The notes under the pieces are model-generated. The model ran no database searches. It worked only from the letters and a program-made list of their open reading frames with translations, and had not been told where the DNA came from. A program made the translations under genes and the position numbers. From assembly GCF_000504285.1 (NCBI RefSeq), contig NZ_KI632511.1, positions 3,841,372 to 3,905,371 of the forward strand: DNA of 64,000 nucleotides, given 5' to 3'. This stretch comes from Actinospica robiniae DSM 44927 (GTDB taxonomy: Bacteria > Actinomycetota > Actinomycetes > Streptomycetales > Catenulisporaceae). Shown here one piece after another: positions 5,749 to 22,001 of this stretch. Numbering within the stretch: the stretch's first letter is position 1; every line of letters starts with the position of its first letter.

Positions 5749-6336
5749 TCAATGGCTGACTGGGAGGTCTCTTGCACGCTGGCGCGCCTGGGCGCGAAGT
5801 TCTTTCAGCTGTGGGTGGAAGCCGTTGTGGCTGTTCTGGTCCAGGTTGAGCGGCAAGTCGAGCTGGGCGATCAGCTCACTTTCCGCCGTCCACGGCTCCG
5901 GGTCTTCGAACCAGCAGACCTGGGCATTCTCTGCCATCCACTGGCTCAGACGGGCCTCCCCGGCCGCACAGAAAGTCATACGTCCGCCGCTGCCCACGCG
6001 CCGCAACTCGAGTCCGAGCAAGCATCCCAGCGTGAGTCGCAGTGTGGAGCCGGCCGCGTTGCCGCGGAAGTGGTAGCGGACCCGCTTCCGGAGGTTCTGG
6101 GTACTCGTACGCGTCTTCATGTGACGCGGCGCGATGCCCACGTAGAGCAGCTGACCGCGCGGGAGCTCTGCGCATGGGGACTGCCGGAAGTGCCAGCCAT
6201 ACACCCCTGACGTCGCAGGTATGGGGCTTGGCCTAACGAGCACATCCTTCGCAGACCACAAGCGCTCGGGTGCAACAAGCGCAGCAGCGTCCACGGATGC
6301 CTCCTCCACGAGGTCGGCGCCAGCAAGCACCCGCAT
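5749..6336 (-). CDS. GIY-YIG nuclease-domain protein
   Basis: Predicted 195-residue protein of the actinobacterial GIY-YIG family. SGVYGWHFR is the GIY-like strand and LLYVGIAPR the YIG-like strand; NLRKRVRYHFRGN and STLRLTLGCLL follow in the usual order, and the C-terminal half has WMAENAQVCWFEDPEPW and LDLPLNLDQN, all characteristic of the family. Such domains cleave DNA in restriction, repair or mobile-element enzymes, but the role of this stand-alone form is unknown. ATG 6336 gives a normal-length N-terminus; the open frame extends upstream (another ATG at 6444) into sequence with no similarity. Flanked by broken genes, so its context is rearranged. Confidence 0.8.
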   Translation of the reverse strand: MRVLAGADLVEEASVDAAALVAPERLWSAKDVLVRPSPIPATSGVYGWHFRQSPCAELPRGQLLYVGIAPRHMKTRTSTQNLRKRVRYHFRGNAAGSTLRLTLGCLLGLELRRVGSGGRMTFCAAGEARLSQWMAENAQVCWFEDPEPWTAESELIAQLDLPLNLDQNSHNGFHPQLKELRAQARQRARDLPVSH

Positions 6337-6466
6337 GCCACAGGCGATGCTGCCGACCTGCCAGCCCTCTAAGTCACTGCACCGAAGGTACAGGCTCGAA
6401 AGCACGCCAGGCCGCGTCACAAGCTCCCGCGATCCGCGATGCATGTACGGACTACTACTGCGGTGA

Positions 6467-6982
6467 CAGGCCGACCAGGCGCGGGCGGACGGCGTCCCGG
6501 TCCCGCTCGACTTCGACCACGAGTTCAAAGGCAACAACTGGCACCCGTGGGGCGCGGGCGGCGCCCAGTACGCCACCGCCGGCCAATTCGCTGCGGCGTG
6601 GCGCCACCTCCATAGCGTGTCTACCGCCCAGGGCGCCGATAACGTGGCGTGGGTGTGGTCCCCGAACGTGATCAATCCTCTGCCGAACATCTCCCTCGCC
6701 CCCTACCGGCCGGGCGCCCGCTGCGTGGACCGGGCCGGGATAATCGGCTACTGGACCGGATACCAGGGCCAGGGGGCGTACACGACGCTCCACGGCCCGA
6801 CCGAGCGGGAGATCGAGGGCGTGGCCGGTGACCCGCGCCTGAGCGCGTTCGCCTACTTCGACTACGGCACGGCTCACGGCAAGCAGGTGGACTGGACGCT
6901 CGAGAGCGACCCGGCCGCTTTCGCCGCGTGGCACACCGCGATCAGGGCGCAGCCGATCGCCACAGCCGGATCGGCGGGCTGA
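6467..6982 (+). pseudogene. Truncated GH26-like glycoside hydrolase
   Basis: The frame opens directly after a TGA (6464-6466) with no start codon near it and encodes the C-terminal part of a GH26-like (beta-mannanase fold) protein. LDFDHEFKGNNWHPWG contains the acid/base Glu motif of GH26, and NVAWVWSPN is the conserved strand after it. The N-terminal half of the barrel is absent. The segment where the nucleophile Glu is expected looks shortened (GYWTGYQGQG leading into HGPTEREIEG), so the domain may have been atypical even before truncation. The stop is 1 bp before the next gene, suggesting they once formed an operon. Confidence 0.65.
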
Positions 6983-6983
6983 G

Positions 6984-7571
6984 ATGGTCACCGAGAACGA
7001 CCCCGGCCGCGAGGAGCTTGAGAAGACCGGGGAGATGGAGTCGCCCACGGCCACCGATCTGGCCGCGCGGTGGCGCGACGAGGCCACGCTGCGGGACCGC
7101 CTTCAGCTCTCGAGGACGACCATCGTCGGGGGCACCGCAGCCGCCATCGTCGTCACGATCACCGCGGCCGCCCTCACCGTCTCCCTGCACTCCGGCCCCG
7201 GCACCGTCTTCCCGGTCGCGCCAAGCGTGGTGAGCGACCCGAGCAGCGCCGCCGCCGCCGTCCAGTCTGTGCAGCCCGCCTCGCACACCTGGACGAACGG
7301 CCGACTGACCATGCCGCAGACCAGCCGGGCCACCTGGCACACCGCGCCCGTCCACCTGCCCGCCGGGGCCGCCTCGGCCACCGTGGCCGCGCCGCGCACC
7401 ACCAACAGCTCGACGCCGCCCGCCACGGTCCGGCAATCCGCCCCGGCCTCGGCCTCCGCTCCCGCCTCTGCTCCGGCTTCCCCCTCGGCGAGCCCGACGC
7501 CGCCAGCCAGCCCGCCCGCCACGGTCGCCTCCTCCTCCCCTGCGAGCGTGCCTGAAGAAAGCTCGTCCTAA
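6984..7571 (+). CDS. Single-span membrane protein with Ser/Pro/Ala-rich tail
   Basis: Uncharacterised 195-residue protein. About 45 charged cytoplasmic residues precede one hydrophobic segment (TIVGGTAAAIVVTITAAALTV, broken by no charge), and the remaining 120 residues are Ala/Ser/Pro/Thr-rich, as in wall-spanning stalks. No catalytic motif is visible. It starts 1 bp after the stop of the truncated GH26-like gene, so it may be a leftover partner from an exopolysaccharide or cell-wall locus. It may not be expressed now that the upstream gene has lost its 5' end. Confidence 0.55.
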   Translation: MVTENDPGREELEKTGEMESPTATDLAARWRDEATLRDRLQLSRTTIVGGTAAAIVVTITAAALTVSLHSGPGTVFPVAPSVVSDPSSAAAAVQSVQPASHTWTNGRLTMPQTSRATWHTAPVHLPAGAASATVAAPRTTNSSTPPATVRQSAPASASAPASAPASPSASPTPPASPPATVASSSPASVPEESSS

Positions 7572-8120: not shown

Positions 8121-9170
8121 GTGCCGTACTCAAGGGAGCCGTGCGGGCCCGTCCTCAGCGGCGACATCCTGGCCGAAGGCGAAGTCGCGGGATTCGCCTT
8201 CCACCCCTCACCTTTTCCGGATGCGTCCAACGATCTCCTGCTGCTGCGCAAGGACCAGGACTGTGCGGCGCCGCCGAACCGCCCGGTGCCGCGGAGCGCC
8301 GCAGACGCCCTCGAACTCGCGTCGGCGCCGGTGCTGCGGTTGGCGCAAAAGCACGTGCGGAAGGCGGCCGCGATCGACGAGGCCCTGCCGAGGAGGATGA
8401 CGGCGCTGCTGCGGTCGCCGGGGCGACCGTGGACTGCCGTCCTCGACGAGCTCGTCAACGCGATCGACGGCGCTCAGCACGAGGTCTGGCTTGTCGGTGG
8501 CGCGACACGCGACACGATCTCCGGCGACGGCGAGGTCGGCGACATGGATCTCGCCGGAACGGCGCCGGCCGGCCACTTCTCGCAGATCGCCCGGTGCGCG
8601 CGCACGCGGCTGGGTATGGAGTCCCGGGAAAAGGTGAGCCCTGACTCGCTGGTGTGCTCGGCCGAGGTACGGGCCGGCGGCGACCGTTTGTACGAGTACC
8701 GTGCGCTGAACATGAACGGCTGGCCGTTCCCGGTCAGCTGCAGTGACATAGCGCAGGACGCCGAATGCCGAGATCTCACGATCAACAGCATCTACTACGA
8801 TCCACGGCGCGCTGATGTGCTCGACCCGGTCGGCGGCCTCGCCGATCTGACCGACGTCCCGCGCAGGCTCCTGAGCCGGCGTCGGCCTGCTGAGGCTGAG
8901 CAGCAGGCGGTGGTCATTCTGCGCGCGATCAAGTTCCTGTTGCGCTGGGAAGGGTCACATGACCTCGACCTGACGTCGATGTCGGCGTGGGTGTCCACGG
9001 TGCCCGGCAATTGGGCGGAGCGACTGACCGCTGCCGCCTGGCGCGAGCTCTGCGAACTCCGCGCGGAGTACGTCGTCGACGCTTCGCCCGAACTGCAGTT
9101 GCGACTCGCCGGTCGTCTCGGCCCGGCCGCGGTCGATCTGGTGCGCGCGCTGCTGGGAGATGCCTCATGA
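8121..9170 (+). CDS. CCA-adding/poly(A) polymerase-type nucleotidyltransferase
   Basis: Predicted 349-residue cytoplasmic enzyme. Residues about 123-240 form a Pol-beta-type head like class II CCA-adding enzymes: EVWLVGGATRD is the GG motif, GDMDLAGT supplies the metal-binding D-x-D, and ECRDLTINSIYYD followed by DVLDPVGGLADL matches the poly(A) polymerase head region. The tRNA-binding tail domains of true CCA enzymes are not evident, and about 120 N-terminal residues are of unknown type. GTG 8121 is chosen because GGAGGAG sits just before it; GTG 8055 would add 22 residues including a CxxC. It is the first gene of an operon and ends in an ATGA overlap with the next. A target other than tRNA CCA ends is likely. 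Confidence 0.7.
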   Translation: MPYSREPCGPVLSGDILAEGEVAGFAFHPSPFPDASNDLLLLRKDQDCAAPPNRPVPRSAADALELASAPVLRLAQKHVRKAAAIDEALPRRMTALLRSPGRPWTAVLDELVNAIDGAQHEVWLVGGATRDTISGDGEVGDMDLAGTAPAGHFSQIARCARTRLGMESREKVSPDSLVCSAEVRAGGDRLYEYRALNMNGWPFPVSCSDIAQDAECRDLTINSIYYDPRRADVLDPVGGLADLTDVPRRLLSRRRPAEAEQQAVVILRAIKFLLRWEGSHDLDLTSMSAWVSTVPGNWAERLTAAAWRELCELRAEYVVDASPELQLRLAGRLGPAAVDLVRALLGDAS

Positions 9171-10453
9171 AGGCCGCACACCGTCCGCTGAGTGACTGGA
9201 TCGCGCGTACTCTTCCCACGGACCCGCCGACGCCCGGGCCCGTGAACGACGGAGCGGAACGTGCGGACGCGCGCTGGCTTCCTCGTTTCGGCCAGGGCTG
9301 GGAAAGGCGCAGCTGCCTGGTGGCCGATCGGGACGGCCGTGCCTACCAGGCGCTGGGCCTGTACGCGCCCGAGTCAGGGGAAACTGTCGTCGAGCTCGAC
9401 AATTACGGGGCGCCACTTCCGGCCGATGAGCAGGCGGTGGCCCTGATCGCCGACATCGAGCGGCAATGGCCGCAGCCGAACCTCAGCGAGTCCGAGCTCG
9501 CGGAGCTCGCGGATCAGGCATCTGAGATCCGCTATCTGCTCTTGTCCCGGCTCGCGCACGAGGGAGATCCACCGCCGGAGCTCTTTCACATCCTGCCCTG
9601 GCACGATGTCGAGTCGGTCTGCCGGTCGGTCGTCGGGCTGCTCCGAGGCGATCCGCCGGCACCGGTGCGCGCGCTCGGCCACCTGTTCACTCCCGCCATC
9701 ACCCAGGTTACGGGTCCGCTCGAGCAGCTTCACCTCGGCCTCGCCGAAGCGGACCAGGGGCTGATCCGCGTCGGCGCCACCGCCCTCTGCCAGGGCCTTT
9801 ACCTCTGTGACGTCCGGAGGCTGCCGCCGAGCACCGCGCGGGCGTTCGTGCGAGCCCTGGCGCTGATCGGCGAGGCCAACCCGTTCCTGACCCACATCGC
9901 CACAGTGACCTCGGCGCGGCTGACGGACACCGCCGCGGTCTTCTTCTCCGCGAGGCTCACCCGCGAGATGACGAAGTTCGCGGCTAGCAGCGGCGTCCGG
10001 TTCGAGAGCCGGCAGTTCGCGGACGACAGCCGGCTGCGGGTGACCGCTCAGGTGAACCAAGCCGGGACGCTCAGCGTCGCCATCGACTACGCCGTTCCCG
10101 CTGACGATCTGCGTGCGCAACTGCTCGCGTCCTACGAGGCGGCGGTCTTCCAGCCGGTGCGGATCATCACAGACGAGGGCGCCGCCTGGTACTGGGTGGC
10201 CTTGGAAGTCAGAGCGCGCCGGCTCTCCGGAGTGATGAGCCTGTCCGCGCCGGAGCGGTTCACGGTCCAGGCCGACCTCGGGCCGGTCGGGGCCCGCGAG
10301 CTCGCCGAGCATACGCCCGAGGTACTGCGTCCGTCGCTATGGGCCGCGGACAACGCCGGCAAATCCGTTTGGCGGACCGCGGCCGCGGCGCTTGTCGACC
10401 ACCACCCGGTCAGCATGGCCGTGGCCGCAGCGGAAAGCGAAGGCTGGCGATGA
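9167..10453 (+). CDS. Uncharacterised 428-residue protein of the nucleotidyltransferase operon
   Basis: Not recognised. No signal peptide, membrane span, nucleotide-binding loop or nuclease motif is visible. The N-terminal third has mixed strands (SCLVADRDGRAYQALGLYAP), the middle is helix-rich and leucine-rich, and the C-terminal third again predicts strands with WYWVALEVRARRLSG. The gene sits between the nucleotidyltransferase and the large membrane propeller gene with ATGA overlaps on both sides, so the three products are almost certainly made together and probably form one complex or pathway. An adaptor or substrate-recognition role is a guess from position only. Confidence 0.65.
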   Translation: MKAAHRPLSDWIARTLPTDPPTPGPVNDGAERADARWLPRFGQGWERRSCLVADRDGRAYQALGLYAPESGETVVELDNYGAPLPADEQAVALIADIERQWPQPNLSESELAELADQASEIRYLLLSRLAHEGDPPPELFHILPWHDVESVCRSVVGLLRGDPPAPVRALGHLFTPAITQVTGPLEQLHLGLAEADQGLIRVGATALCQGLYLCDVRRLPPSTARAFVRALALIGEANPFLTHIATVTSARLTDTAAVFFSARLTREMTKFAASSGVRFESRQFADDSRLRVTAQVNQAGTLSVAIDYAVPADDLRAQLLASYEAAVFQPVRIITDEGAAWYWVALEVRARRLSGVMSLSAPERFTVQADLGPVGARELAEHTPEVLRPSLWAADNAGKSVWRTAAAALVDHHPVSMAVAAAESEGWR

Positions 10454-13400
10454 CCGCGACCCACGAGTCCACCGGTTCGGGCTACACGGTGGAGGACGTG
10501 CGAAGCCTGCTCACCGAGGAGATGGAGTTCCTTGAGAGCGAACTGGTGATGTATCAGGCGCTCACCGGCGCCGAGCAACTCCTCCTCACGTTCATCGTCG
10601 CCTGCGTCGTCGAACGCGATATCACGGCGCTCAAGGCGATGTGCCACGCCACGACGCCGCTGCACGAGTTGTTCAAAGGGCGATCCGGCGCCATGGGTGA
10701 GAGCATTGCCATAGGACCGTACAACGGCACTGCGGAATGTCAGCTCAACGCGATGCGCGCGCTGGCCTCCCTCGGCCTGGCGCTCATCGACGACGAGTCG
10801 GAAGTACTCGGGCACGCCGCCACCGCCTTGGTCTGGTTCGACCACGCGCACATATTCTTGCCGGTCGGGACGGATCTGCGGCGCGTGGAATGGGGCTCTG
10901 TGCACTCCCGCAGACTCAGCCTGCTGGCCGAACTGCTCGCGGACGAACCGCTCGGCTTCGCGGCCGTCCTCTGGGCGGCCGAGCTGGGCGATCCGGCCCG
11001 GAACGAAGGCAGATCGCCCGCACGTCGAAGCAGGAGCCGTGGATCGGCCGCGATCGAGACGCTCCTCGACAAGGGGGAAGACGGCCAGTGCGCCACCCTC
11101 CAGATCCGCATGCGGCGGGAGTTGCCCCCCGCGCTCGTGCCCGATCTGTGGTCCATGGCTCTGTTCAGCGGCGACGCCGGTTTCCTCTCGGGCCTGCGCA
11201 CCGCGTGGAGCCAGGGCGGCCGGCTGGCCCGGGGCACAGTGCTGTGGCGCCTCACCGATCCGGCCGGGCCCATCGACCGGGTCTATGACATCTCTCTGAC
11301 CGGCGCCTTCACAGTCGCGGTCAACGAGGCCTGCCGTACCAGCGCGCCGTTCGTCAACGCCTTTGTGATCCGCCGGATCAGAGCCAGGACGGCCATCGTG
11401 GGCGGAGTCGACGACGGCGGTCGGATGATCCCGGTGGGCGGCTACCGCCAGAAGATCGAAGCCGCCGGGAAGATGACCCGCGTGGTGGTGCCGCGTGCGA
11501 ACACCGCGGAGGCTCAGCGGGCCCGGCGCACCGAAGGCCCGGAGATCATCGGAGCCGACACTTGGCAGGAGGCTGCGAAAAAGAGCCGCGTGATCAGCCG
11601 AGCCGCCCTGCGGAACAGGATCACGGCCGCTTTGGTGGCCGGCGTCTCGATCAGCGCCGGCATCCTCGTGCCACACGTTCTTCACACGGTAGGGGCCGCG
11701 CAGCGCACGAGGGATTCGCAGATCATCGCCACCTACGTGGAGGACCACCCGTCGCTATCCAGTGATACGGCCGCCCTGCTGTCGGTGGCTGCGTACCGTG
11801 ACTCCGCCACACCGGAATCGATCCAAGCGCTGTTCGACGCATACGCAGGGATCTCGCCCTACTCCGAAATCTTGGACAGCTACGCTGACGGAGCGCTGGA
11901 GACGTTCTCGGCGGACTCGGACGCCCGCTGGGTATCGGTCACCGGCGAGAACCAGGCCGCGATGTATGACACGGGACCGAATTCGGCTTCGCCCGTCTCC
12001 GCGTGGACGCTGCCGGACGTCGCACGTGCGCAGATCTCACCCGACGGCAGATGGCTCGCCACCATCATGACGAACGGAGCGATGAAGATCTGGAGCACGG
12101 CCACCCGCCGAGCGACATTCACCCTCCCCTACCCGGCGGTGGGCCCTTTCCAGAACGCGGGTGTACTGGCGTGGAATCCGTCCAGCACCCTGCTGGCTTA
12201 CTCAGACGGCTCGGAGACCCTGCGCACCCTTGCCCTTCCCGCCGGAACCGAGCGCGTCATGCCAACCCCGGAAGATGCGATCGGCGGCTACGCGCAGATC
12301 GGATTCGGCGCGCTGAGCGGTGACCTGTACGCGGTAGAGGGTACGGGCGGGGGCGGATCACTCTATTCGTGGGATCCGCGCACGGGCGCAACGATCGAGT
12401 CGGCGCTGAACTCCCTCACAGGCTCCATCGTGTCCGGACACGGTGATGCGATCGCGGCCTGCAGCGCCGGCCACTGGAGGTTCACCGACCCCAGCACCGG
12501 CGCACCGATACCGCACGTGGCATCCACGCTGCCTTGTACGGATACGAGCGAAGCACGCTGGCTGACGGACTCCACGCTCGTCCAGACCGAATCTCCCGAG
12601 AACGCCGGTGGCGTGAGCAACTACAACGTCCCGGGAGTCGGCAAAGTCGTGGACCTGCGCGACGGCGCGGTCAAGTCGACGTTCTCGACGGGCTCATGGT
12701 CTTCCGGTGCCGATGTCGTCGCCGCATCGAGCGACGGCACGCGGATTGTGGCGGCCACGGACAAGTTCGCCGGTTACCTTCAGACACACGACCCCGCCTC
12801 GCAGATTCCGAGTCCGGAGACTTCCACAGTCCGACCCCTCTTAAGCCCGAACGGGCATATCGAGGTGGGCTTCGATCCACAGGCTCCGGGTCCGGCCTCA
12901 CTCTGGCCGCAACTGGAGGTGACCGAGCAACAAACCGGAGCGGCCGTCACCTACCTTCCGGTGGGCTCCTCTGCCGGCACACCTGCGCCGAACACGACCG
13001 TCGACGGCTTCGAATTCGCACCCGATGGAACCCTGATCACAGAGACGGGTGGGGTGTTCGAGCGGTGGAACCTCCTCGATCACACCAGGATCGGGCCCGG
13101 CGTCAGAGACCCGTACGCCTCCTCGCTTCCCCTCGGCAGCGCCTTCTCGACGACATCGACCGGCGGCGCAAGCTCGGTCGCGCTCATGAACCCGGCAACA
13201 GACGACATCGAGCTGTGGAGTTTGTCGCCGGTAAAAGAAGTAGCGACGATCGGACCCGTCCCGGGTGGAATCGACCATTGGCGACTCAGCCCGGACGGCC
13301 GATACATATCCGTCTCCACCATCGATGGGAACGTACTGTCGGGGCTCGTTTCCAAGGGAAGCCTGAGCCCGGCGCTTTCGGACCTGGCTGCCGATGATCA

Positions 13401-13728
13401 ATTTCTCGCAGTACTCGATGATGGGGCCGTAGCCGGCGGGGCGGAAACGGCTCTCTATCTGGAGACGACGCCCGGAAACGAGAACACGCTGAGGGTGCCG
13501 CCGCAGCTTCAGATCACTCAGCTCGCAGCCGACCCTACCGGGACCAGGTTTCAAATAACGATGGAGTATTCCGCTGATGAGCTCGACTCGCCGATCGGTG
13601 CCCCCCTCCAGTTCTCGGCAGACCCCGAACAGTGGGCTCGCGAGATCTGCTCCGTGGTTTCACGTGATCTGCAGGCCGGCGAGACCGTGGGCGTGGGGGC
13701 GGAGGTCACCGATCAACCCTGCGGCTGA
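10450..13728 (+). CDS. Membrane protein: degenerate Lon-like domain, one span, C-terminal beta-propeller
   Basis: 1092 residues. Residues 1-180 are helical and unknown. Residues about 260-355 resemble the Lon protease catalytic domain: the DGGRMIPVGGYRQKIEAAG stretch aligns with the family's GxVLPIGGLKEKxxAA and is followed by RVVVPRAN. The dyad lysine position of GG-x-K is Arg333 and no GxSAG-type serine is seen, so it is probably a pseudo-protease. A single membrane span lies at about 391-412. Residues 450-1060 show WD40/TolB-like strands (SPDGRWLATIMTNGAMKIWS and similar). If the N-terminus is cytoplasmic, the propeller is outside, giving a receptor-like layout. ATG 10450 overlaps the previous TGA. 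Confidence 0.7.
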   Translation: MTATHESTGSGYTVEDVRSLLTEEMEFLESELVMYQALTGAEQLLLTFIVACVVERDITALKAMCHATTPLHELFKGRSGAMGESIAIGPYNGTAECQLNAMRALASLGLALIDDESEVLGHAATALVWFDHAHIFLPVGTDLRRVEWGSVHSRRLSLLAELLADEPLGFAAVLWAAELGDPARNEGRSPARRSRSRGSAAIETLLDKGEDGQCATLQIRMRRELPPALVPDLWSMALFSGDAGFLSGLRTAWSQGGRLARGTVLWRLTDPAGPIDRVYDISLTGAFTVAVNEACRTSAPFVNAFVIRRIRARTAIVGGVDDGGRMIPVGGYRQKIEAAGKMTRVVVPRANTAEAQRARRTEGPEIIGADTWQEAAKKSRVISRAALRNRITAALVAGVSISAGILVPHVLHTVGAAQRTRDSQIIATYVEDHPSLSSDTAALLSVAAYRDSATPESIQALFDAYAGISPYSEILDSYADGALETFSADSDARWVSVTGENQAAMYDTGPNSASPVSAWTLPDVARAQISPDGRWLATIMTNGAMKIWSTATRRATFTLPYPAVGPFQNAGVLAWNPSSTLLAYSDGSETLRTLALPAGTERVMPTPEDAIGGYAQIGFGALSGDLYAVEGTGGGGSLYSWDPRTGATIESALNSLTGSIVSGHGDAIAACSAGHWRFTDPSTGAPIPHVASTLPCTDTSEARWLTDSTLVQTESPENAGGVSNYNVPGVGKVVDLRDGAVKSTFSTGSWSSGADVVAASSDGTRIVAATDKFAGYLQTHDPASQIPSPETSTVRPLLSPNGHIEVGFDPQAPGPASLWPQLEVTEQQTGAAVTYLPVGSSAGTPAPNTTVDGFEFAPDGTLITETGGVFERWNLLDHTRIGPGVRDPYASSLPLGSAFSTTSTGGASSVALMNPATDDIELWSLSPVKEVATIGPVPGGIDHWRLSPDGRYISVSTIDGNVLSGLVSKGSLSPALSDLAADDQFLAVLDDGAVAGGAETALYLETTPGNENTLRVPPQLQITQLAADPTGTRFQITMEYSADELDSPIGAPLQFSADPEQWAREICSVVSRDLQAGETVGVGAEVTDQPCG

Positions 13729-13774
13729 CCGGGACCAGTATCGTTTGCCCAGACGGGCGAGTGGTCGACGTCAC

Positions 13775-14338
13775 ATGGCTCTGAGAAGCTTCGGGCTCTG
13801 GCTGTTCGTACTCCCCACCACCGTTGCCGCCACAGGGTGCACGTCCACGAGCAGCCAGGCCTCGAAGACTTCTGTGGCCACGCCCAATCTGGGACTCACC
13901 CAGCTTCCGCCGACAACCTCATCCGCTGGAGCCGCGGGGGAATTCGACTACTCGGCGGCAGCCGGCGAGCTCGCCGGGCACTATCTGACGGTCGTCGTCG
14001 GGCCGCCCGCGAGCCAGCGCACAGGAGCGCTTCACGCCCTGGCCGCAATGTGCACCGGCTCGGCGGACGGCCATTGCGGCGGGATCGCCTTCTTCGAGGG
14101 CGCGAAGTACGTCGCATGGATCGATAACGCGGACCCGCAACTTGTCCGGTTCGTGGAGCAGGATGGCACCGACGTCATCGTAGACATCCCGCGTTATCTT
14201 CCCAAAGACGGCATCTGCTGCCCATCCGGTGCTTTCACGGCCGACTACCGTTGGAACGGCACGCGCATAGTTGCCGTCGGGCCGAACGCCCGATCCGTGC
14301 CCGTTCCAAGCCCGCCTCGCTTGGGCGCGGGACTATAA
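13775..14338 (+). CDS. Putative lipoprotein downstream of the propeller gene
   Basis: Uncharacterised 187-residue protein with a lipoprotein-type leader: Arg near the start, a hydrophobic core (LWLFVLPTTVAA) and a Cys at about residue 22 in AATGC followed by Ser/Thr-rich residues. The mature part contains DYSAAAGELAGHYLTVVVG and paired cysteines (MCTGSADGHCGG, GICCPSG). It lies 46 bp after the propeller gene in the same direction, so it may be an extracellular partner of that protein. ATG 13775 is the natural start for the leader; the open frame upstream overlaps the previous gene and lacks similarity. Confidence 0.6.
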   Translation: MALRSFGLWLFVLPTTVAATGCTSTSSQASKTSVATPNLGLTQLPPTTSSAGAAGEFDYSAAAGELAGHYLTVVVGPPASQRTGALHALAAMCTGSADGHCGGIAFFEGAKYVAWIDNADPQLVRFVEQDGTDVIVDIPRYLPKDGICCPSGAFTADYRWNGTRIVAVGPNARSVPVPSPPRLGAGL

Positions 14339-16060: not shown

Positions 16061-18388
16061 TCAGACAGAGCCGTTCGGCAGTCGGAAGGCGGCGAATCCG
16101 GCCGGTCCGCCGTAGGCGATCTGCGCGCTGAAATCGACGGTCTCCGTGCACGCCGTGACGGCGTGCACCGGAGCCCCCGTCGTGACGGTGAGCAGATTGA
16201 TCTCCGCCACGGGGTCCCAGACGCGCACCGTGCGGTCGCCGCCGCCCGTCGCCAGCAGCCATCGTCCGTCCGGGCCGGGGAAGGCCGCGAGCGCGCTGAC
16301 AGGGCCCGAATGGCCGCACAACTCGCGTGGCGGCGTGCCGCCGATCAGGTCCAGGATGCGGACAGCGCCGTCATTGCAGCCGATCGCCACGAGCCAGCGG
16401 TGGTCCGGTCCGGGGAAGGCCGCCATCGTCGTGAGCATGCCGGCTTGCGCGGCGGCCGTACCCACACGCTCCACGGTCACGGGATCCCACAGCCGCACGG
16501 CTAGTTCCGTGCCGATGGCCAGCAGCCAGCGGCCCTCCGCGTCGGGGAGGGCGGTCATCGATTTGACGAATCCGAGGTCTTCCGGCAGGCGGCTGACCGC
16601 GCCGGTGTCCGGATCCCAGATGGCCACCGTGCGGTTGCTGCCGACCGCCGCCAACCAGCGCCCGTCGCGGCCCGGGACCGCAGTCAGGGCACTGATCCAG
16701 CCGTCGGCGAAGCCGGCGCGCTCGGCGGTCGCTACGCCGCTGACCGGATCCCAGGCACGCACCGCGCGGTCGTTACTGCCGGTGAGCAGCCACCCGCGAC
16801 CATCCGGCCGCGGCAGTACAGCCATCGCGTTGACCAGGTCCGCGTGCGGGGCCAGCCAGCGCCGGTGCTCTCCCGTGGCCGGGTCCCAGATGTGTACCTC
16901 CTGGCCGGCCCCGCTGCTGGCGAGCAGCCATCGGCCGTCGCCGGTCGGCACCGCGGCCAGCCTCTTGACCGGGCCCACCGTCTCGGCGCCTGCAGGGGAC
17001 GGGGTCGTGCGCGCGCCGGACCGGACGGCTTGCGGGTCCCAGACGCGTACCGTCCCGTCACCTCCACCGGTGGCGATCAGCCATCTTCCGTCCCTACCGG
17101 GGAACGCCGCCATCGCCATGATCTTGCTGGTGTCGCGCTGCCGAGAACGGATCCGGTGCTTCTCGGCGAGCGGGGCCCAAAGCCGGACCATGCCGTCGTT
17201 GCTGGTCGCAAGCAGGCTCGTGCCGGCGGGGCCCGGAAAGACGGTCATAGCCCTGATGGGGCCGCCGTTCGTGACGATCGGCGCGCGCAGCGCCCGCGTC
17301 CGCGGGTCCGCCACCACCACCTTTCCGTCCTCACCGCCGATCACCAGCAGTTCGCCCTCCGGATCGGGGAGAGCGGCGAGTGCGCGGATCGCGGCCGAGC
17401 ACGCCGCCACCTGGCAGACGAAGCTCTGGTTCGCGAGATTCCAGATCTTCACCGTGCCCTCGTCGTCGCCGGTGGCCAGATACCGGTCGGGGGAACCGAA
17501 CGTGGTCATCGCGGTGACCGTGCCCGTGTAGAACCTCGCCAGCCCGATACGCACGGGCACGCCGGTGAAGGGGGCGTGGAACTGCAGCGAGCCTCCGCCG
17601 CTCGCCGCGACGACCCAAGCGTTGCCGGGCCCTCGAAACGCCGCCATCGCGGTGACGGCGCCGGGCAGCCGGCCCGGTTCCGGGCCGAGTGGCGTGCTGG
17701 TGGCCGGCTCCCAGGCGCACACGGACCCGTCCGCGCCGCCGGTGGCCAGCAGCCACCGGCCGCTCGGTCCCCGGAAGGAGACCACCGCCGTAACCGGTCC
17801 GGCGTGCGCGGCTATGGGCTGTCCGGTCAGGGCACCGGTGGCCGGGTCCCACATCTTCACCGTGCCGTCCTCGCCGCAGACCGCGAGCAGAGGCCTGCCG
17901 TCCGGGCCCGGGACATCCTCGATCTTCGTGATCGGGCTCGGCTCGTGGGAGAGGATGTCGTGGTTGGCGGGCTTCCAGTGCGTCGCGAGCGGGACGATCG
18001 CGGAACCACTGCCGCCGTGGTCGGCTCCGGCCGCCGCGAGGGCCTGATCAAGGCTGCTCGCCCGCGACCGGTGGTCTCCGGTCAGGAAGGGTTCGATCCC
18101 GGCCCAGGCGGCCAGTCGGCGGCGGTCCGCACGCTCGCTGACCGGCAGGCCGAGCTGCCCGCGCACGCCGCCTGACTCCTCCCAAGGCAGGAAGTCCGCG
18201 GACAGGTGCGTGTCGTCGAGCACGTGCCCGAGCGCCGCGTGCTGGACGAGATGATGCCGGACATACGGATGCGGCGGTGTATCGGTGTTCGCCGTCGCGG
18301 CCATCGCGGCGAGCCGGTCGGCGATCCGGTGGTGGACCGCCTCGTCCGAGTCTGCCTTTCCGGCTTCGGCCGGACTGGGAGAGGTCAC
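16061..18388 (-). CDS. 14-repeat WD40 beta-propeller protein
   Basis: 775 residues. After about 165 N-terminal residues (helical, including PHPYVRHHLVQHAALGH, as found between STAND ATPases and their propellers) come 14 WD40 repeats of about 43-50 residues with the consensus GRWLLATGGGDGTVRVWDP, enough for two seven-bladed propellers. The GTG start at 18388 overlaps the stop of the caspase-STAND gene in a GTGA. In related proteins caspase, ATPase and WD40 parts are often one polypeptide, so this is probably the split-off sensor half of that protein. The repeats are alike enough to suggest recent expansion. Likely role: ligand or partner recognition. Confidence 0.85.
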   Translation of the reverse strand: MTSPSPAEAGKADSDEAVHHRIADRLAAMAATANTDTPPHPYVRHHLVQHAALGHVLDDTHLSADFLPWEESGGVRGQLGLPVSERADRRRLAAWAGIEPFLTGDHRSRASSLDQALAAAGADHGGSGSAIVPLATHWKPANHDILSHEPSPITKIEDVPGPDGRPLLAVCGEDGTVKMWDPATGALTGQPIAAHAGPVTAVVSFRGPSGRWLLATGGADGSVCAWEPATSTPLGPEPGRLPGAVTAMAAFRGPGNAWVVAASGGGSLQFHAPFTGVPVRIGLARFYTGTVTAMTTFGSPDRYLATGDDEGTVKIWNLANQSFVCQVAACSAAIRALAALPDPEGELLVIGGEDGKVVVADPRTRALRAPIVTNGGPIRAMTVFPGPAGTSLLATSNDGMVRLWAPLAEKHRIRSRQRDTSKIMAMAAFPGRDGRWLIATGGGDGTVRVWDPQAVRSGARTTPSPAGAETVGPVKRLAAVPTGDGRWLLASSGAGQEVHIWDPATGEHRRWLAPHADLVNAMAVLPRPDGRGWLLTGSNDRAVRAWDPVSGVATAERAGFADGWISALTAVPGRDGRWLAAVGSNRTVAIWDPDTGAVSRLPEDLGFVKSMTALPDAEGRWLLAIGTELAVRLWDPVTVERVGTAAAQAGMLTTMAAFPGPDHRWLVAIGCNDGAVRILDLIGGTPPRELCGHSGPVSALAAFPGPDGRWLLATGGGDRTVRVWDPVAEINLLTVTTGAPVHAVTACTETVDFSAQIAYGGPAGFAAFRLPNGSV

Positions 18389-20481
18389 GCTTGCTCCATC
18401 GGGATCCGCAGGAGACCGGGCTGCTCCCGCAGGATGCGGGCCAAGTCCTTGTGAAGCGGGCGGTAGACGACGCGTTCGGCTTCCACGTCGGTGCTCAGGT
18501 AGCCGGCCAGCCGCCCGCTGAGCAGCGCTTCGATCGCTGATTCGGCGTCCGGCAGGGGCCGGTCGGCCACGGCCTCGGCGATGGCCGGCCAGAGATCGGC
18601 GCGCGGGACACCTGCGCCGAGGGCGAAGGCCGTCGCGCGCAACAGCGCGAGGGCGACGTCCGGCTGCAGTTCGGGGCGGGCTGAATCGATGAGGTCCTGA
18701 CGCAGCAGGCCGACGGTGCCGGACCCCAGATCCGTCTGCCATCGCGGATCGAGGAAGAGCGCGAGCGCGTCCGGCGCCGCACACAACTGATTCGCGGCGA
18801 TGCCCGCCTCAAGGAACGAGGCCTTGTCGGTGATCGCACCCAGCAGGGCTCGTGCCGTCTCGGGACCCGCGGCCGTGGTGCCTTCGAGCATCGCTTGCAC
18901 GTATTCGACGATGTCGTCTTCTGTGTGCGCGCCGTCCGTCCGCAGAACGAGAGGCGTCCGGCCGTCGACGGTCGTGACGCGGCGGAGCAACGCAAGCAGC
19001 TGATTCTCATCGCCGATGCCGCCACGCGTCGTCGCGGACGGATCGGTCCCGAGCGGAAGCGTCGGCCGCGGGCTGCGCACACCGAGAACCAGTCGGGGCG
19101 GATGACTCAGCCGGGCGAGTCGGTTGATCACCTGTGTGGCGAGCAGATAAGGACTGTCGGCTTCGTCCACTGCGTCTATCACGATCGTCGTCACGGTCGG
19201 CCGAGCGGCGAGAGTCCGCTCGACGGAGTCGAGCAGGTCCTGGACCGAGTCGGCCCCGGCCGCCGGATCGGCCACGAATCCGCCGAGAGCCTCCAGAAGC
19301 AGGGTGAGGACCTGTCGCGAGGTGCGGTTGGTGGCCCGGATCGCGGCCTGCACGCTCTCGCTGGGCGCAACCGTATCCGGCGGGGAGAGCTCGACAGCGG
19401 CCCGGTACCGCTCGTCGGCGAGGAACGAGGGATCCGCGAAGGTGACCGCACGCGCGAGTACCGCTGACTTTCCGCTGCCGGCGGTTCCGGTGACGATCAG
19501 CGCCCCGGCGACGGCGGTCTCGGGATCCTCCGAGAGGAACTGCGCCACCTGACGGTTCAGCTCCCGGCGCCCGGAGAAGTACCAGTGCCCGTCGGCGCTC
19601 GGCGCTCCCGAAGCGCGTTCGATCCAGAAGCTCATCTCCCGCTGCGGCACCGCCACCTGGCGGCGCGGCGGCTGGACCAGTTCCTCAGCGGCCCTGTACC
19701 GCGGGTTGGGCAGCGCGAAGTGCGGTTTGTGGGCATTCGCCTCGCGCACCCTGCGCAGCCGGCGCAGCCCGCCGGCGGGCTCGGCGTCGACGACGGAGTT
19801 CATCTCGTTCATGAAGGTGTCGAGGCTGAGGTACTCGCTGGTGATCTCCGAGACGCTGGTCAGCCTCTGGTGCAGGCGTTCCAGCATCGCGCCGAAGGCC
19901 CCGATGGGTATTTCCTCGTCGAAGTCGGCCGTGGACAGCACCGCGAGTACCGTATCGCGGCGGCGCCCGGGCCCGAGCTCGGACCACACATCGTCCAGCG
20001 CCTCCACGATGCCACCGGACTCGCAAGTGTTGACGATGATCAGAATGTGCTCGGCGTGCGAGCCCAGAGCCGCGCGGGCCACCTCCGCGGTCGGAAAACC
20101 GGTCGCCAGCAAGCGCCGGCGCTCGCTTCGCGGCAGGACGAGGTAGTGCCGGCGGGATTCCGTCGTCATCCCGTGGCCGGCTACGAAGACGAACAGCACA
20201 TCCTGCGGCTGTGATTCGCGCAGATCGCTGAAGTGCAGGAAGTCCTCGACGTCGCGACGCGAGAGCACGGGCGAGGCATGCTCGACCTCGAATTCACCGC
20301 CCGGCACCGCCGGACCGCCCCACCAGGTCTCGAGCATGTCGATCTGGCGTCGAACGGCCTTGCCGAACTCCTCGTCCTCCTCCGGGTAGTCGGCCGCCGC
20401 AATGGTCAGAACCCTGCGTCGCCCGGCCGCGGTCCCGACCGTGTCGGCGCCCGCGCCGTTTCCCGTACCTGCTGTCAGCAC
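18385..20481 (-). CDS. Caspase-like peptidase fused to a STAND/NACHT-type ATPase
   Basis: 698 residues from GTG 20481. Residues about 25-250 form a caspase-like (C14) domain: VLFVFVAGHGM holds the catalytic His (about 103) and ILIIVNTCESGG the catalytic Cys (about 153). Residues about 300-690 are a STAND-type P-loop module: GTAGSGKS (about 332-339) is Walker A and TIVIDAVDEAD (about 433-442) Walker B. The C-terminus is helical and leads by GTGA overlap into the WD40 gene. Such proteins act in bacterial immunity and cell-suicide pathways: the propeller senses, the ATPase oligomerises, the caspase cleaves. The start is uncertain; it lies only 20 bp from the divergent lipase gene. Confidence 0.85.
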   Translation of the reverse strand: MLTAGTGNGAGADTVGTAAGRRRVLTIAAADYPEEDEEFGKAVRRQIDMLETWWGGPAVPGGEFEVEHASPVLSRRDVEDFLHFSDLRESQPQDVLFVFVAGHGMTTESRRHYLVLPRSERRRLLATGFPTAEVARAALGSHAEHILIIVNTCESGGIVEALDDVWSELGPGRRRDTVLAVLSTADFDEEIPIGAFGAMLERLHQRLTSVSEITSEYLSLDTFMNEMNSVVDAEPAGGLRRLRRVREANAHKPHFALPNPRYRAAEELVQPPRRQVAVPQREMSFWIERASGAPSADGHWYFSGRRELNRQVAQFLSEDPETAVAGALIVTGTAGSGKSAVLARAVTFADPSFLADERYRAAVELSPPDTVAPSESVQAAIRATNRTSRQVLTLLLEALGGFVADPAAGADSVQDLLDSVERTLAARPTVTTIVIDAVDEADSPYLLATQVINRLARLSHPPRLVLGVRSPRPTLPLGTDPSATTRGGIGDENQLLALLRRVTTVDGRTPLVLRTDGAHTEDDIVEYVQAMLEGTTAAGPETARALLGAITDKASFLEAGIAANQLCAAPDALALFLDPRWQTDLGSGTVGLLRQDLIDSARPELQPDVALALLRATAFALGAGVPRADLWPAIAEAVADRPLPDAESAIEALLSGRLAGYLSTDVEAERVVYRPLHKDLARILREQPGLLRIPMEQA

Positions 20482-20501
20482 AATCGGTATTCTTACTCGC
20501 C

Positions 20502-22001
20502 ATGACCGGTGCGGGGAGCCAGTACTCTCAAATCGATACCGTGCGGGCATCCCAGCCGTGGACTGCGAACCCGCCGATCCAACCCGTCTTCACGCACGAC
20601 GCGGTCGTGCTGCTGCCCGGGATCATGGGCAGCGTGCTGCGCGACGCGTACACCGACGAGAAACTCTGGGGCCTGAGCGGCCGGGCGCTCGCGGACGCCT
20701 GGACCACCGGACGCGTGTTCGAGCGGCTGAAAGTCACCGATGACGAACGCAAAGGGCTGGCCGGGCGCGTCGCCGCCACCGAACCGCTGACCCTGCCGGT
20801 CGGCGGACCGCTGTTCAACGGCATCGAACCCTACGACCTCTTACGCAAGGCCGCCGTCGAAGTGACACTGCCCGGCGCGGTCCTGGACTTCCCTTACGAC
20901 TGGCGGCTGTCGGTCGCCCACAACGCGGACCTGCTGGTCGAGGCGGCTCACACGCACCTGCGGGACTGGCGGCGCTCGTGCGCGGACCGCCCCGAACTCG
21001 TCGGCCTCGACCCCCCGCGGCTCGTGTTCGTCGCCCACTCCATGGGCGGGTTGATCGTCTCCGACGCTCTGCACACCGACACGCGCCTGGCCGCGGACAC
21101 CCGCAGCGTGATCACTCTGGGCACGCCCTTCGCGGGCTCGGTACTGGCAGCCGCGATGCTCGCCGGCGAGCACAAGGTGGCGGCGCTGCCCACGCAAAGG
21201 CTGCGGACGCTGGCGGTGTCGGCGCCAGGCGTCTACGACCTGCTGCCGATCTACCCGTGCCTTGATACCGGGACCGACGTGCTGCGGCTGACCCCTGAGC
21301 ACGTAGCGGCGCTGGGCGGCGACCTCGAGCAGGCCCGCCTGGCCTTGGCACGGCGCAGCAACGCGCACGACACCGCGCGGGCGCTGCCCGGGCACAGCCC
21401 GGCCATCGGAATCGCCCATCCGACGCCGACCAGCATCGCACTCGAGGGCGGCAGGCTGACGCTTCACCTACACGGGCACCGGCACGGATCGGACGGCCTG
21501 CTGCGGCGCGACCTCGGCACGGGCATCCCGCTCCGGTTCGACCGGCGTGGCGACGGCACGGTCCCGCGGGACGCCGCGCATCCCGGTCCGACCCGTCCCT
21601 CGGCCTATATTCCTGCCCGGCACAGCGCGCTGACCCGGCATGAAATGGCTTTGGATCACGTCAAGTCGGTGCTCACGGACCAAGAGCCGTTGGGCCCGAT
21701 GGCGAGCGGGCGTGACGGGATCGGTATCGTGCTGCCCGACCAGGCGCAGGTCGGGCAGCCCTGGACGCTCGAAATCCACACGGACCGCTCACCTTCGGCG
21801 GTGCAGGCGACGATCGGCTCCGTCGAGGAGGATCGACCGCGCGAGCTGCCCCTGCGCCGCGGCGAAACGCCCGATGGCGGGAGGCTGCTGTGGGCCCGCC
21901 ACAGCGTGGGCGAGCCGGGGATCTACCGGGTCACCGTCGACATCGGAGCCGGGCCGAACACCGAACTGACCGAACTGCTGCTGGTGACCGATTCGCGGTG
22001 A
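20502..22001 (+). CDS. LCAT-type lipase/acyltransferase, alpha/beta hydrolase
   Basis: 499 residues related to lecithin:cholesterol acyltransferase and phospholipid acyl hydrolases. Visible are VVLLPGIMGSVL near the N-terminus (oxyanion region), FPYDWR, the nucleophile elbow VAHSMGGL, a GDGTVP segment with the likely catalytic Asp, and LDHVKSV with the likely His. No signal peptide is seen, so it is probably cytoplasmic and could act on the inner membrane face. About 110 C-terminal residues form an extra strand-rich domain. The gene is divergent from the caspase-STAND pair with 20 bp between chosen starts, which suggests joint control. A membrane-damaging effector role is an inference from context. 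Confidence 0.8.
   Translation: MTGAGSQYSQIDTVRASQPWTANPPIQPVFTHDAVVLLPGIMGSVLRDAYTDEKLWGLSGRALADAWTTGRVFERLKVTDDERKGLAGRVAATEPLTLPVGGPLFNGIEPYDLLRKAAVEVTLPGAVLDFPYDWRLSVAHNADLLVEAAHTHLRDWRRSCADRPELVGLDPPRLVFVAHSMGGLIVSDALHTDTRLAADTRSVITLGTPFAGSVLAAAMLAGEHKVAALPTQRLRTLAVSAPGVYDLLPIYPCLDTGTDVLRLTPEHVAALGGDLEQARLALARRSNAHDTARALPGHSPAIGIAHPTPTSIALEGGRLTLHLHGHRHGSDGLLRRDLGTGIPLRFDRRGDGTVPRDAAHPGPTRPSAYIPARHSALTRHEMALDHVKSVLTDQEPLGPMASGRDGIGIVLPDQAQVGQPWTLEIHTDRSPSAVQATIGSVEEDRPRELPLRRGETPDGGRLLWARHSVGEPGIYRVTVDIGAGPNTELTELLLVTDSR

What the first reader, a model, noticed from the sequence alone, without database searches (positions are those of the whole stretch)
8121..14338. Operon of CCA-type nucleotidyltransferase, unknown protein and receptor-like pseudo-Lon/beta-propeller membrane protein
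Three genes are locked together by ATGA overlaps and followed by a lipoprotein gene. A nucleotidyltransferase head without obvious tRNA-binding tail, a protein of unknown fold, and a membrane protein with a cytoplasmic dead Lon domain and a probable outside propeller is a combination I do not recognise as a described system. It could be a transmembrane signalling or conflict module in which an outside or membrane signal turns on an RNA- or protein-modifying nucleotidyltransferase. Adjacent immunity-type genes support the idea.
Basis: partly seen in the sequence, partly recalled or inferred. Interest (0 to 1): 0.76.

Follow-up and report, generated by a model that had tools for sequence, protein, structure and literature searches.

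The report
Putative membrane-controlled nucleotide alarm module
Three overlapping genes encode an enzyme related to tRNA-end and poly(A) polymerases, a protein of unknown fold and a membrane protein with a Lon protease domain; in most related rows a membrane-effector gene of a type known from virus defence sits beside them, so they may form a new kind of cell-alarm circuit.

Summary
The three genes are real and joined by ATGA overlaps; a lipoprotein gene follows. A (8121-9170) is a PolyA_pol/CCA-type nucleotidyltransferase with its catalytic residues kept but no body after the head; the genome has a separate CCA enzyme. B (9167-10453) has no recognised family. C (10450-13728) has a cytoplasmic Lon proteolytic domain, one membrane helix and propeller matches beyond it. 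The Lon domain is not visibly dead. A and B matched the same 7 of 197 genomes of the order; C is in the row in 17 of 17 testable loci.

The decisive finding lies outside the window. In 13 of 18 distinct loci a membrane effector sits directly beside the row: a SLATT-like 2TM protein (11) or an S_4TM protein (2). No CD-NTase was found there. The 2TM protein's close relatives outside these rows adjoin SMODS CD-NTases, 4 of 4.

Best reading: A, regulated by B, makes a nucleotide signal that gates the effector, and C senses the envelope: a CBASS-like conflict module with a class II nucleotidyltransferase in the CD-NTase's place. The window copy has no recognised effector, and nothing biochemical is shown.

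The parts
8121..9170 (+). Gene A: class II (PolyA_pol/CCA-type) nucleotidyltransferase, 349 aa, GTG start; head domain only, with a conserved N-terminal extension of about 100 aa
   Evidence: Pfam PolyA_pol E 3e-13 (scanned from 8376); closest solved relative E. coli poly(A) polymerase E 6.4e-14; 17 rows aligned
8541..8549 (+). Catalytic Asp-x-Asp (D141, D143) of A
   Evidence: invariant in 17 of 17 rows; third carboxylate E192 is E or D in 17 of 17; R217, D218, N222, K271 also 17 of 17
9167..10453 (+). Gene B: 428 aa protein without recognised family, overlaps A and C by ATGA
   Evidence: no family match over a cut-off; AlphaFold model mean pLDDT 88; no Foldseek PDB match at E 1e-3
10450..13728 (+). 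Gene C: membrane protein of 1092 aa: N-terminal helical region, Lon proteolytic domain, one TM helix, beta-propeller region
11041..11592 (+). Lon proteolytic domain of C (residues 198-381)
   Evidence: Z 20.9, rmsd 2.1 over 163 residues to E. coli Lon 1rr9; Foldseek best E 2.5e-9
11293..11295 (+). Ser282 codon, candidate Lon nucleophile
   Evidence: invariant 16 of 16; just before helix 284-298 of the model; its match to E. coli S679 is inferred, MAFFT did not align the two
11452..11454 (+). Lys335 codon, Lon catalytic lysine
   Evidence: aligns with E. coli K722 by MAFFT and hhalign; invariant 16 of 16
11626..11682 (+). Transmembrane helix of C (residues 393-411)
   Evidence: hydropathy 1.96; two weaker stretches lie in the N-terminal region
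11767..13725 (+). WD40/beta-propeller region of C, extracytoplasmic by inference
   Evidence: propeller matches under the curated cut-offs; mean pairwise identity 28% against 44% for the Lon domain
13775..14338 (+). Gene D: LppP/LprE-like lipoprotein, possibly the outside partner of C; its membership of the module is uncertain
   Evidence: Pfam Lipoprotein_21 E 1.4e-6; many relatives instead carry a lipoprotein-like protein of about 490-660 aa next to C

Best explanation
The operon is the core of a membrane-controlled nucleotide-signalling conflict module. C and, in many relatives, a partner lipoprotein watch the envelope with outside propellers and pass the signal through one membrane helix to a cytoplasmic Lon domain. 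That domain probably acts by cutting or releasing a partner, perhaps B. B is the dedicated regulatory partner of A. When released, A polymerises nucleotides without template or tRNA into a short oligonucleotide signal. In most relatives this signal gates a SLATT-like 2TM or an S_4TM membrane effector encoded in the same gene row, which breaks the membrane and kills or arrests the cell. Shown here: gene row, families, conserved catalytic residues, co-occurrence, effector neighbours. Inferred: that A makes a soluble signal, that the signal opens the pore, the topology of C and the direction of signalling, the part played by B, and that the window copy uses an effector I could not find.
For: A and B matched the same 7 of 197 genomes. 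C lies in the row in 17 of 17 loci where the contig reaches. A recognised membrane effector lies directly beside the row on the same strand in 13 of 18 distinct loci. 9 of 9 2TM proteins scanned match PADLOC 'Effector, 2TM' models (best E 3.6e-72) and its RTasSLATT model, the plasmid copy too; the two 4TM proteins match Pfam S_4TM, 'SMODS-associating 4TM effector domain', at 5e-82 and 9e-52 and PADLOC 'Effector, 4TM' at 3e-163 and 5e-100. S_4TM passes its cut-off in 0 of 296 sampled genomes of the phylum (1 of 296 at E 1e-3 under the cut-off), while the same search finds it in the Frankia genome. In 4 of 4 loci without A-B the nearest 2TM relatives adjoin a SMODS gene over its Pfam cut-off. 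A profile of those four CD-NTases finds none in the A-B loci held. A's catalytic residues are kept in 17 of 17, without the body of the genome's own CCA enzyme. L017 and L026, the two S_4TM loci, lie apart in the trees. C's propeller part varies more than its Lon domain.
Against: The window copy has no recognised effector in the window, and its genome gave no match to S_4TM, SLATT_4 or the 2TM profile; 5 of 18 loci lack a recognised effector. No PADLOC model matches A, B, C or D. No product, phage test or interaction is known. A's nearest solved relatives act on RNA. The 2TM proteins stay under the Pfam SLATT cut-offs, and a profile comparison with SLATT_4 was weak.
Confidence: 0.58

Rival explanations
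1. The signal has the opposite sign: A makes a nucleotide all the time that keeps the pore shut, and its loss (as reported for Panoptes and Hailong) or C-driven shut-off of A opens it.
For: Panoptes and Hailong are described as working this way (passages of PMC12657230) and the Clover NTase makes an inhibitory nucleotide (passages of PMC12265719). The DRT10 authors raise the possibility that cDNA neutralises SLATT (passages of PMC12632851). The gene rows do not tell the sign.
Against: The closest 2TM relatives partner SMODS CD-NTases, and CBASS signals are described as activating (start of the abstract of PMC10686824 in the listing).
Confidence: 0.16
2. A is an RNA- or protein-modifying enzyme, such as a tRNA-tailing toxin with B as its inhibitor, and the effector next door acts on its own.
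For: A's head belongs to the CCA/poly(A) polymerase family. MenT toxins extend tRNA ends (titles and starts of abstracts of PMC11541572 and PMC10435456, listing). B directly follows A in all 18 rows.
Against: Two different effector families tied to SMODS recur beside A-B. The body after the head is missing. No A-B pair without C was seen where the contig reaches, apart from the decayed L029.
Confidence: 0.15
3. C is the effector, not the sensor: A's nucleotide switches on the membrane-bound Lon protease (compare CalpL, the SAVED-Lon protease of type III CRISPR), and pores are an optional extra.
For: C is the only membrane protein shared by all testable rows, and 5 of 18 rows have no recognised pore gene. 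The candidate Lon dyad is kept. CalpL acts when it binds cA4 (start of the abstract of PMC12751052, listing).
Against: C-like proteins also occur without A-B in 4 rows with strong matches. Its propeller part is large and variable, as expected of a sensor. No nucleotide-binding domain such as SAVED was recognised in C.
Confidence: 0.11

Closest known systems
CBASS (CD-NTase plus effector, anti-phage)
   Same: A nucleotidyltransferase gene in a row with a 2TM/SLATT-like or S_4TM effector. That PADLOC's 'Effector' models are its CBASS models is recalled.
   Different: The nucleotidyltransferase is of the PolyA_pol type, not SMODS/CD-NTase; B and the Lon-TM-propeller protein C are added
CCA-adding enzyme / poly(A) polymerase PcnB
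   Same: Head domain and catalytic residues of A
   Different: No body after the head; far below the curated family scores; sits in a conflict-type gene row; the genome has its own CCA enzyme
Lon protease and Lon-type domains of CalpL and BrxL
   Same: Lon proteolytic fold in C, Z 20.9 to E. coli Lon and 18.4 to the C-terminal domain of BrxL; CalpL is a Lon protease in nucleotide signalling (start of abstract)
   Different: No AAA+ or SAVED match in C; it is joined to a membrane helix and a propeller region
DRT10 (reverse transcriptase plus SLATT)
   Same: A polymerising enzyme paired with a SLATT protein; the 2TM proteins here also match PADLOC's RTasSLATT model, 9 of 9
   Different: The polymerising enzyme here is a nucleotidyltransferase; I saw no reverse transcriptase among the called neighbours but ran no search for one
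NTP-dependent conflict systems with SLATT effectors of multicellular bacteria (Kaur et al. 2020, PMC7159879)
   Same: SLATT as predicted nucleotide-responsive pore, propellers as sensors (passages)
   Different: The passages shown name no CCA-type nucleotidyltransferase

Membership tests
CBASS | CD-NTase (SMODS) as the signal maker | tested here: not met
   A matches only PolyA_pol in Pfam and no PADLOC model; a CD-NTase profile finds nothing in the A-B loci held
CBASS | Effector of a CBASS family in the operon | tested here: inconclusive
   Met in 13 of 18 loci of the family, not found in the window copy
CBASS | Cyclic oligonucleotide product and phage protection | not testable with these tools
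   needs biochemistry and infection tests
CCA-adding enzyme / PcnB | PolyA_pol head with catalytic Asp pair | tested here: met
CCA-adding enzyme / PcnB | Body after the head and family-level score | tested here: not met
   349 aa, against 480 aa for the own CCA enzyme; 47.3 of 305.65 bits for PcnB and 17.9 of 438.8 for the actinobacterial CCA model, which the own CCA enzyme passes with 789.8
Lon (S16) peptidase domain | Lon proteolytic fold | tested here: met
   Z 20.9, 163 residues; by sequence alone under cut-offs and 48% probability in hhalign with E. coli Lon
Lon (S16) peptidase domain | Ser-Lys dyad | tested here: inconclusive
   Lys335 aligns with K722 and is invariant; Ser282 is invariant 16 of 16, but MAFFT did not align it with S679
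Lon (S16) peptidase domain | AAA+ unfoldase in the same chain | tested here: not met
   no ATPase match in C
SLATT (small protein of the relatives) | Match to curated SLATT models | tested here: inconclusive
   Under Pfam cut-offs; PADLOC 2TM effector E 3.6e-72 and RTasSLATT E 3e-12, 9 of 9; the one annotated copy is named 'SLATT domain-containing protein'
S_4TM effector (L017, L026) | Pfam S_4TM over cut-off | tested here: met
   275.9 and 176.7 bits against 26.9

The most novel reading that the evidence does not exclude
A CCA/poly(A)-polymerase-type nucleotidyltransferase has been turned into a second-messenger synthase that drives CBASS-type pores, probably with a new linear oligonucleotide, and it is switched by a membrane-spanning Lon protease with an outside sensor: an envelope-to-cytoplasm alarm alongside CBASS, Pycsar and type III CRISPR signalling.
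Probability: 0.38. Interest if true: 0.86.

Novelty: new variant of a known kind. Interest (0 to 1): 0.72.

Why it matters
If right, it adds a different branch of the nucleotidyltransferase superfamily, the one that builds tRNA ends and poly(A) tails, to the enzymes that make immune nucleotide signals. It also gives a concrete receptor (Lon domain, membrane helix, propeller) by which an outside or envelope event could start such a signal. It makes direct tests possible: what A makes, and whether that product gates SLATT-like and S_4TM effectors.

Tried and rejected
Dead Lon: rejected as stated, because the lysine aligns with the catalytic one and both candidate residues are invariant; activity is unproven.

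Only CCA enzyme of the genome: rejected; a second one passes the curated cut-off of the actinobacterial CCA model.

Effector hidden in the window: tblastn with 2TM, 4TM and lipoprotein queries gave nothing better than E 0.29 and profile searches found none. The one-TM protein at 6984-7571 has a DUF4231 match under cut-off (E 0.0082) and no PADLOC match; I read it as chance.

Fold of B: Foldseek found nothing at E 1e-3. The second look gave TRAF/MATH-like sandwiches for residues 258-375 at Z up to 6.5, within the range that the tool calls common, so I do not use it. The viral library was not searched.

Comparison of the 2TM proteins with SLATT_4 by profiles was weak (21.8% probability, shallow profiles); an alignment with one row on the wrong strand was discarded and redone. 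The PDB sequence search gave no SLATT entry.

Weaker 2TM relatives: one search listed 26 rows, 10 with E under 1e-50. Of the other 16 I looked at the neighbourhoods of 5 (L069-L071, L074, L075) and saw no evident CD-NTase; these were not scanned with Pfam, and the other 11 were not looked at.

Rows dropped or doubtful: L029 is a decayed row and was left out of all counts. In L022 the B gene appears to change frame (two B matches in different frames), so the B row of L022 in alignment A3 is partly out of frame; this explains its long branch in the B tree and slightly weakens A3, the B model built on it and the A3 search. L022 is still counted as a locus. L016's 2TM gene is counted: one search marked one stop in its match, but one search shows a stop-free frame. 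Searches scanned A from 8376; the full A was rescanned with NCBIfam and PADLOC, not with Pfam.

Control limits: the 14 named control genomes of the genome search were silent for S_4TM; a positive control on the Frankia genome rang.

Literature: searches listed no paper that, by title or start of abstract, describes a CCA or poly(A)-polymerase-type enzyme with SLATT or S_4TM effectors. The lists are capped and the library lacks most subscription papers; two papers were not held (Hailong, which I recall as the paper naming SLATT). Names of motifs and E. coli Lon S679/K722 as the dyad are recalled; that those positions hold S and K was checked.
Full report
OBSERVATION. The three genes and the lipoprotein gene exist at the stated place. 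A runs from GTG 8121 to 9170, B from ATG 9167 to 10453, C from ATG 10450 to 13728, and D from ATG 13775 (chosen start) to 14338; A/B and B/C overlap as ATGA. The start of A fits the alignment of its relatives.

GENE A. Pfam gives only PolyA_pol (E 3e-13). The nearest solved relatives are E. coli poly(A) polymerase (E 6.4e-14) and then CCA-adding enzymes. Scores for the named families are far under the curated cut-offs (47.3 of 305.65 bits for PcnB, 17.9 of 438.8 for the actinobacterial CCA enzyme). In 17 of 17 rows the Asp pair, the third carboxylate (E or D) and the RD..N and R..KF residues are kept, so the enzyme should be active. The long body after the head of the genome's own CCA enzyme is missing. 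That other enzyme lies around 5966082-5966450 of the genome and passes the actinobacterial CCA model with 789.8 bits. A is therefore not needed to explain the cell's CCA activity.

GENE B. No library recognised it over a cut-off. An AlphaFold model from 14 sequences, one of them (L022) partly out of frame, has mean pLDDT 88: a beta-rich start, a helical middle, a beta-rich part at 261-368 and end helices. Foldseek found no PDB match at E 1e-3; the second look gave only middling matches for residues 258-375 (Z up to 6.5), which I do not interpret.

GENE C. A model of residues 1-467 (mean pLDDT 79.6) holds a Lon proteolytic domain at 198-381: Foldseek best E 2.5e-9, Z 20.9 with 2.1 A over 163 residues to E. 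coli Lon. By sequence alone the evidence is weaker: Lon_C under cut-off, LonB models under cut-off, PDB Lon at E 0.11. Lys335 aligns with E. coli K722 in MAFFT and in hhalign (48% probability, E 1.8e-4). Ser282 stands just before a helix in the model, and both residues are invariant in 16 of 16 rows. MAFFT did not place Ser282 on S679, so the serine is an inference. One strong membrane helix follows (393-411), then propeller matches. No ATPase domain was found. The Lon domain is the best conserved part (mean pairwise identity 44%), the propeller part less so (28%); between L017 and L018 the Lon domain keeps 57% and the propeller part 18%. Closer pairs show smaller or no differences (for example L027/L028, 77% and 83%). 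The overall pattern fits a sensor with a fixed inside and a changing outside.

DISTRIBUTION. B matched 7 of 197 genomes of the order at E 1e-3 and A matched the same 7 handles of 197 at E 1e-20. In the class, 4 of 394 genomes matched B, one of them weakly. A scan of genome contigs gave 14 loci, all in actinobacteria; the scan depends on peptide patterns, so this is a lower bound. With the window's B one plasmid record matched, and with L020's B no phage record. C is less exclusive: in 197 genomes it had 25 rows in 22 genomes at E 1e-8. Seven are the A-B rows, 4 are further strong matches (E 3e-53 to 1e-31) and 14 are weak ones (E 7e-10 to 1e-8), mostly over profile positions 340-464. The 4 further strong rows lack A and B beside them.

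GENE ROWS. Eighteen distinct loci were compared: window, L010, L012, L013, L016-L028, L099. C is in the row in 17 of 17 where the contig reaches; L024 begins at A. Most Streptomyces have the order C, lipoprotein, A, B, 2TM gene. The window, L017, L018, L021, L022 and L023 have A, B, C. Frankia (L026) has C, A, B, 4TM.

EFFECTORS. Directly beside the row, on the same strand, lies a 2TM protein in 11 of 18 loci and an S_4TM protein in 2 of 18; 5 of 18, the window among them, have no recognised one. In L017 the S_4TM gene follows the lipoprotein gene that ends the row. The S_4TM proteins match Pfam at 5e-82 (L017) and 9e-52 (L026) and PADLOC 4TM effectors at 3e-163 and 5e-100. S_4TM passes its cut-off in 0 of 296 sampled genomes of the phylum, with one match under the cut-off; the same search finds it in the Frankia genome. 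The 2TM proteins match Pfam SLATT models only weakly, but 9 of 9 match PADLOC 2TM effectors and its RTasSLATT model, and the plasmid copy does so too and is annotated as 'SLATT domain-containing protein'.

THE LINK TO CBASS. A search of 293 genomes of the order with the 2TM profile gave 10 matches with E under 1e-50. Six are A-B rows. The other four (L065-L068) lie directly beside a gene whose product matches Pfam SMODS over its cut-off (E 3e-10 to 5e-19), 4 of 4. So all ten strong 2TM genes sit in a row with a nucleotidyltransferase, six with the PolyA_pol type and four with a CD-NTase. A profile of the four CD-NTases found none in the A-B loci held. The two S_4TM loci lie apart in the trees: L017 groups with Herbidospora in A and B (starred) and in C (90/95), while L026 groups with L022 and the window in C (starred) and has no firm place in A and B. 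So the pairing with signalling effectors probably arose or changed more than once.

MECHANISM. The simplest reading is that A took the place of a CD-NTase: it makes a nucleotide signal that gates a membrane effector. B, which overlaps or directly follows A, is its partner. C carries the sensor outside and a protease-like domain inside, and would control A-B across the membrane. Sign (opening or shutting), product, and the order of C and A are not shown. SLATT is needed for DRT10 defence and is thought to be modulated by cDNA (PMC12632851, passages), and inhibitory nucleotide signals are described for Panoptes, Hailong and Clover (PMC12657230 and PMC12265719, passages), so both signs are possible.

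LIMITS. The window copy has no recognised effector, and its genome gave no match to S_4TM, SLATT_4 or the 2TM profile. What is said of the effector step rests on relatives. No experiment supports any step. That PADLOC's 2TM and 4TM 'Effector' models belong to CBASS is recalled; Pfam's own name ties S_4TM to SMODS. The literature searches listed no description of this row, but the lists are capped and the library is incomplete.

VERDICT. A real, conserved, rare actinobacterial module; a CBASS-like variant whose signal maker, partner and receptor appear new in that role.

Noticed in passing
window 16061-22001: A second possible conflict cluster: a minus-strand pair of a WD40 protein (PADLOC HEAT-ARM_XIII E 2.1e-15) and an AAA/STAND protein whose start looks caspase-like by eye (Pfam AAA_16 E 3.6e-8, Peptidase_C13 under cut-off), and a plus-strand LCAT-type hydrolase.
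   Followed up: partly
window 5749-6690, minus strand: GIY-YIG nuclease domain protein (Pfam GIY_YIG_2 E 1.4e-31) upstream of the operon.
   Followed up: no
L095, L096, L097, L098: C-like proteins without A and B beside them; in L096 next to a protein that looks caspase-like by eye and a hydrolase-like one. They suggest a wider family of Lon-TM-propeller receptors.
   Followed up: partly
L065, L066, L067, L068: Rows of a SLATT-like 2TM gene directly beside a SMODS CD-NTase, apparently minimal CBASS, one of them (L067) in a genome of the window's family.
   Followed up: partly
L029: A decayed row: A and B are each found in pieces in different frames and run into a partial 2TM gene; no C was detected.
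   Followed up: partly
L022, around 10004-11261: The B gene matches in two frames, a frame change of unknown origin (decay or sequencing error).
   Followed up: partly
L099: The row C, lipoprotein, A, B, SLATT on a 799 kb linear Streptomyces plasmid, so it can be carried by plasmids.
   Followed up: partly
window 6984-7571: One-TM protein with a Ser/Ala-rich tail and a DUF4231 match under cut-off (E 0.0082); read as chance.
   Followed up: partly
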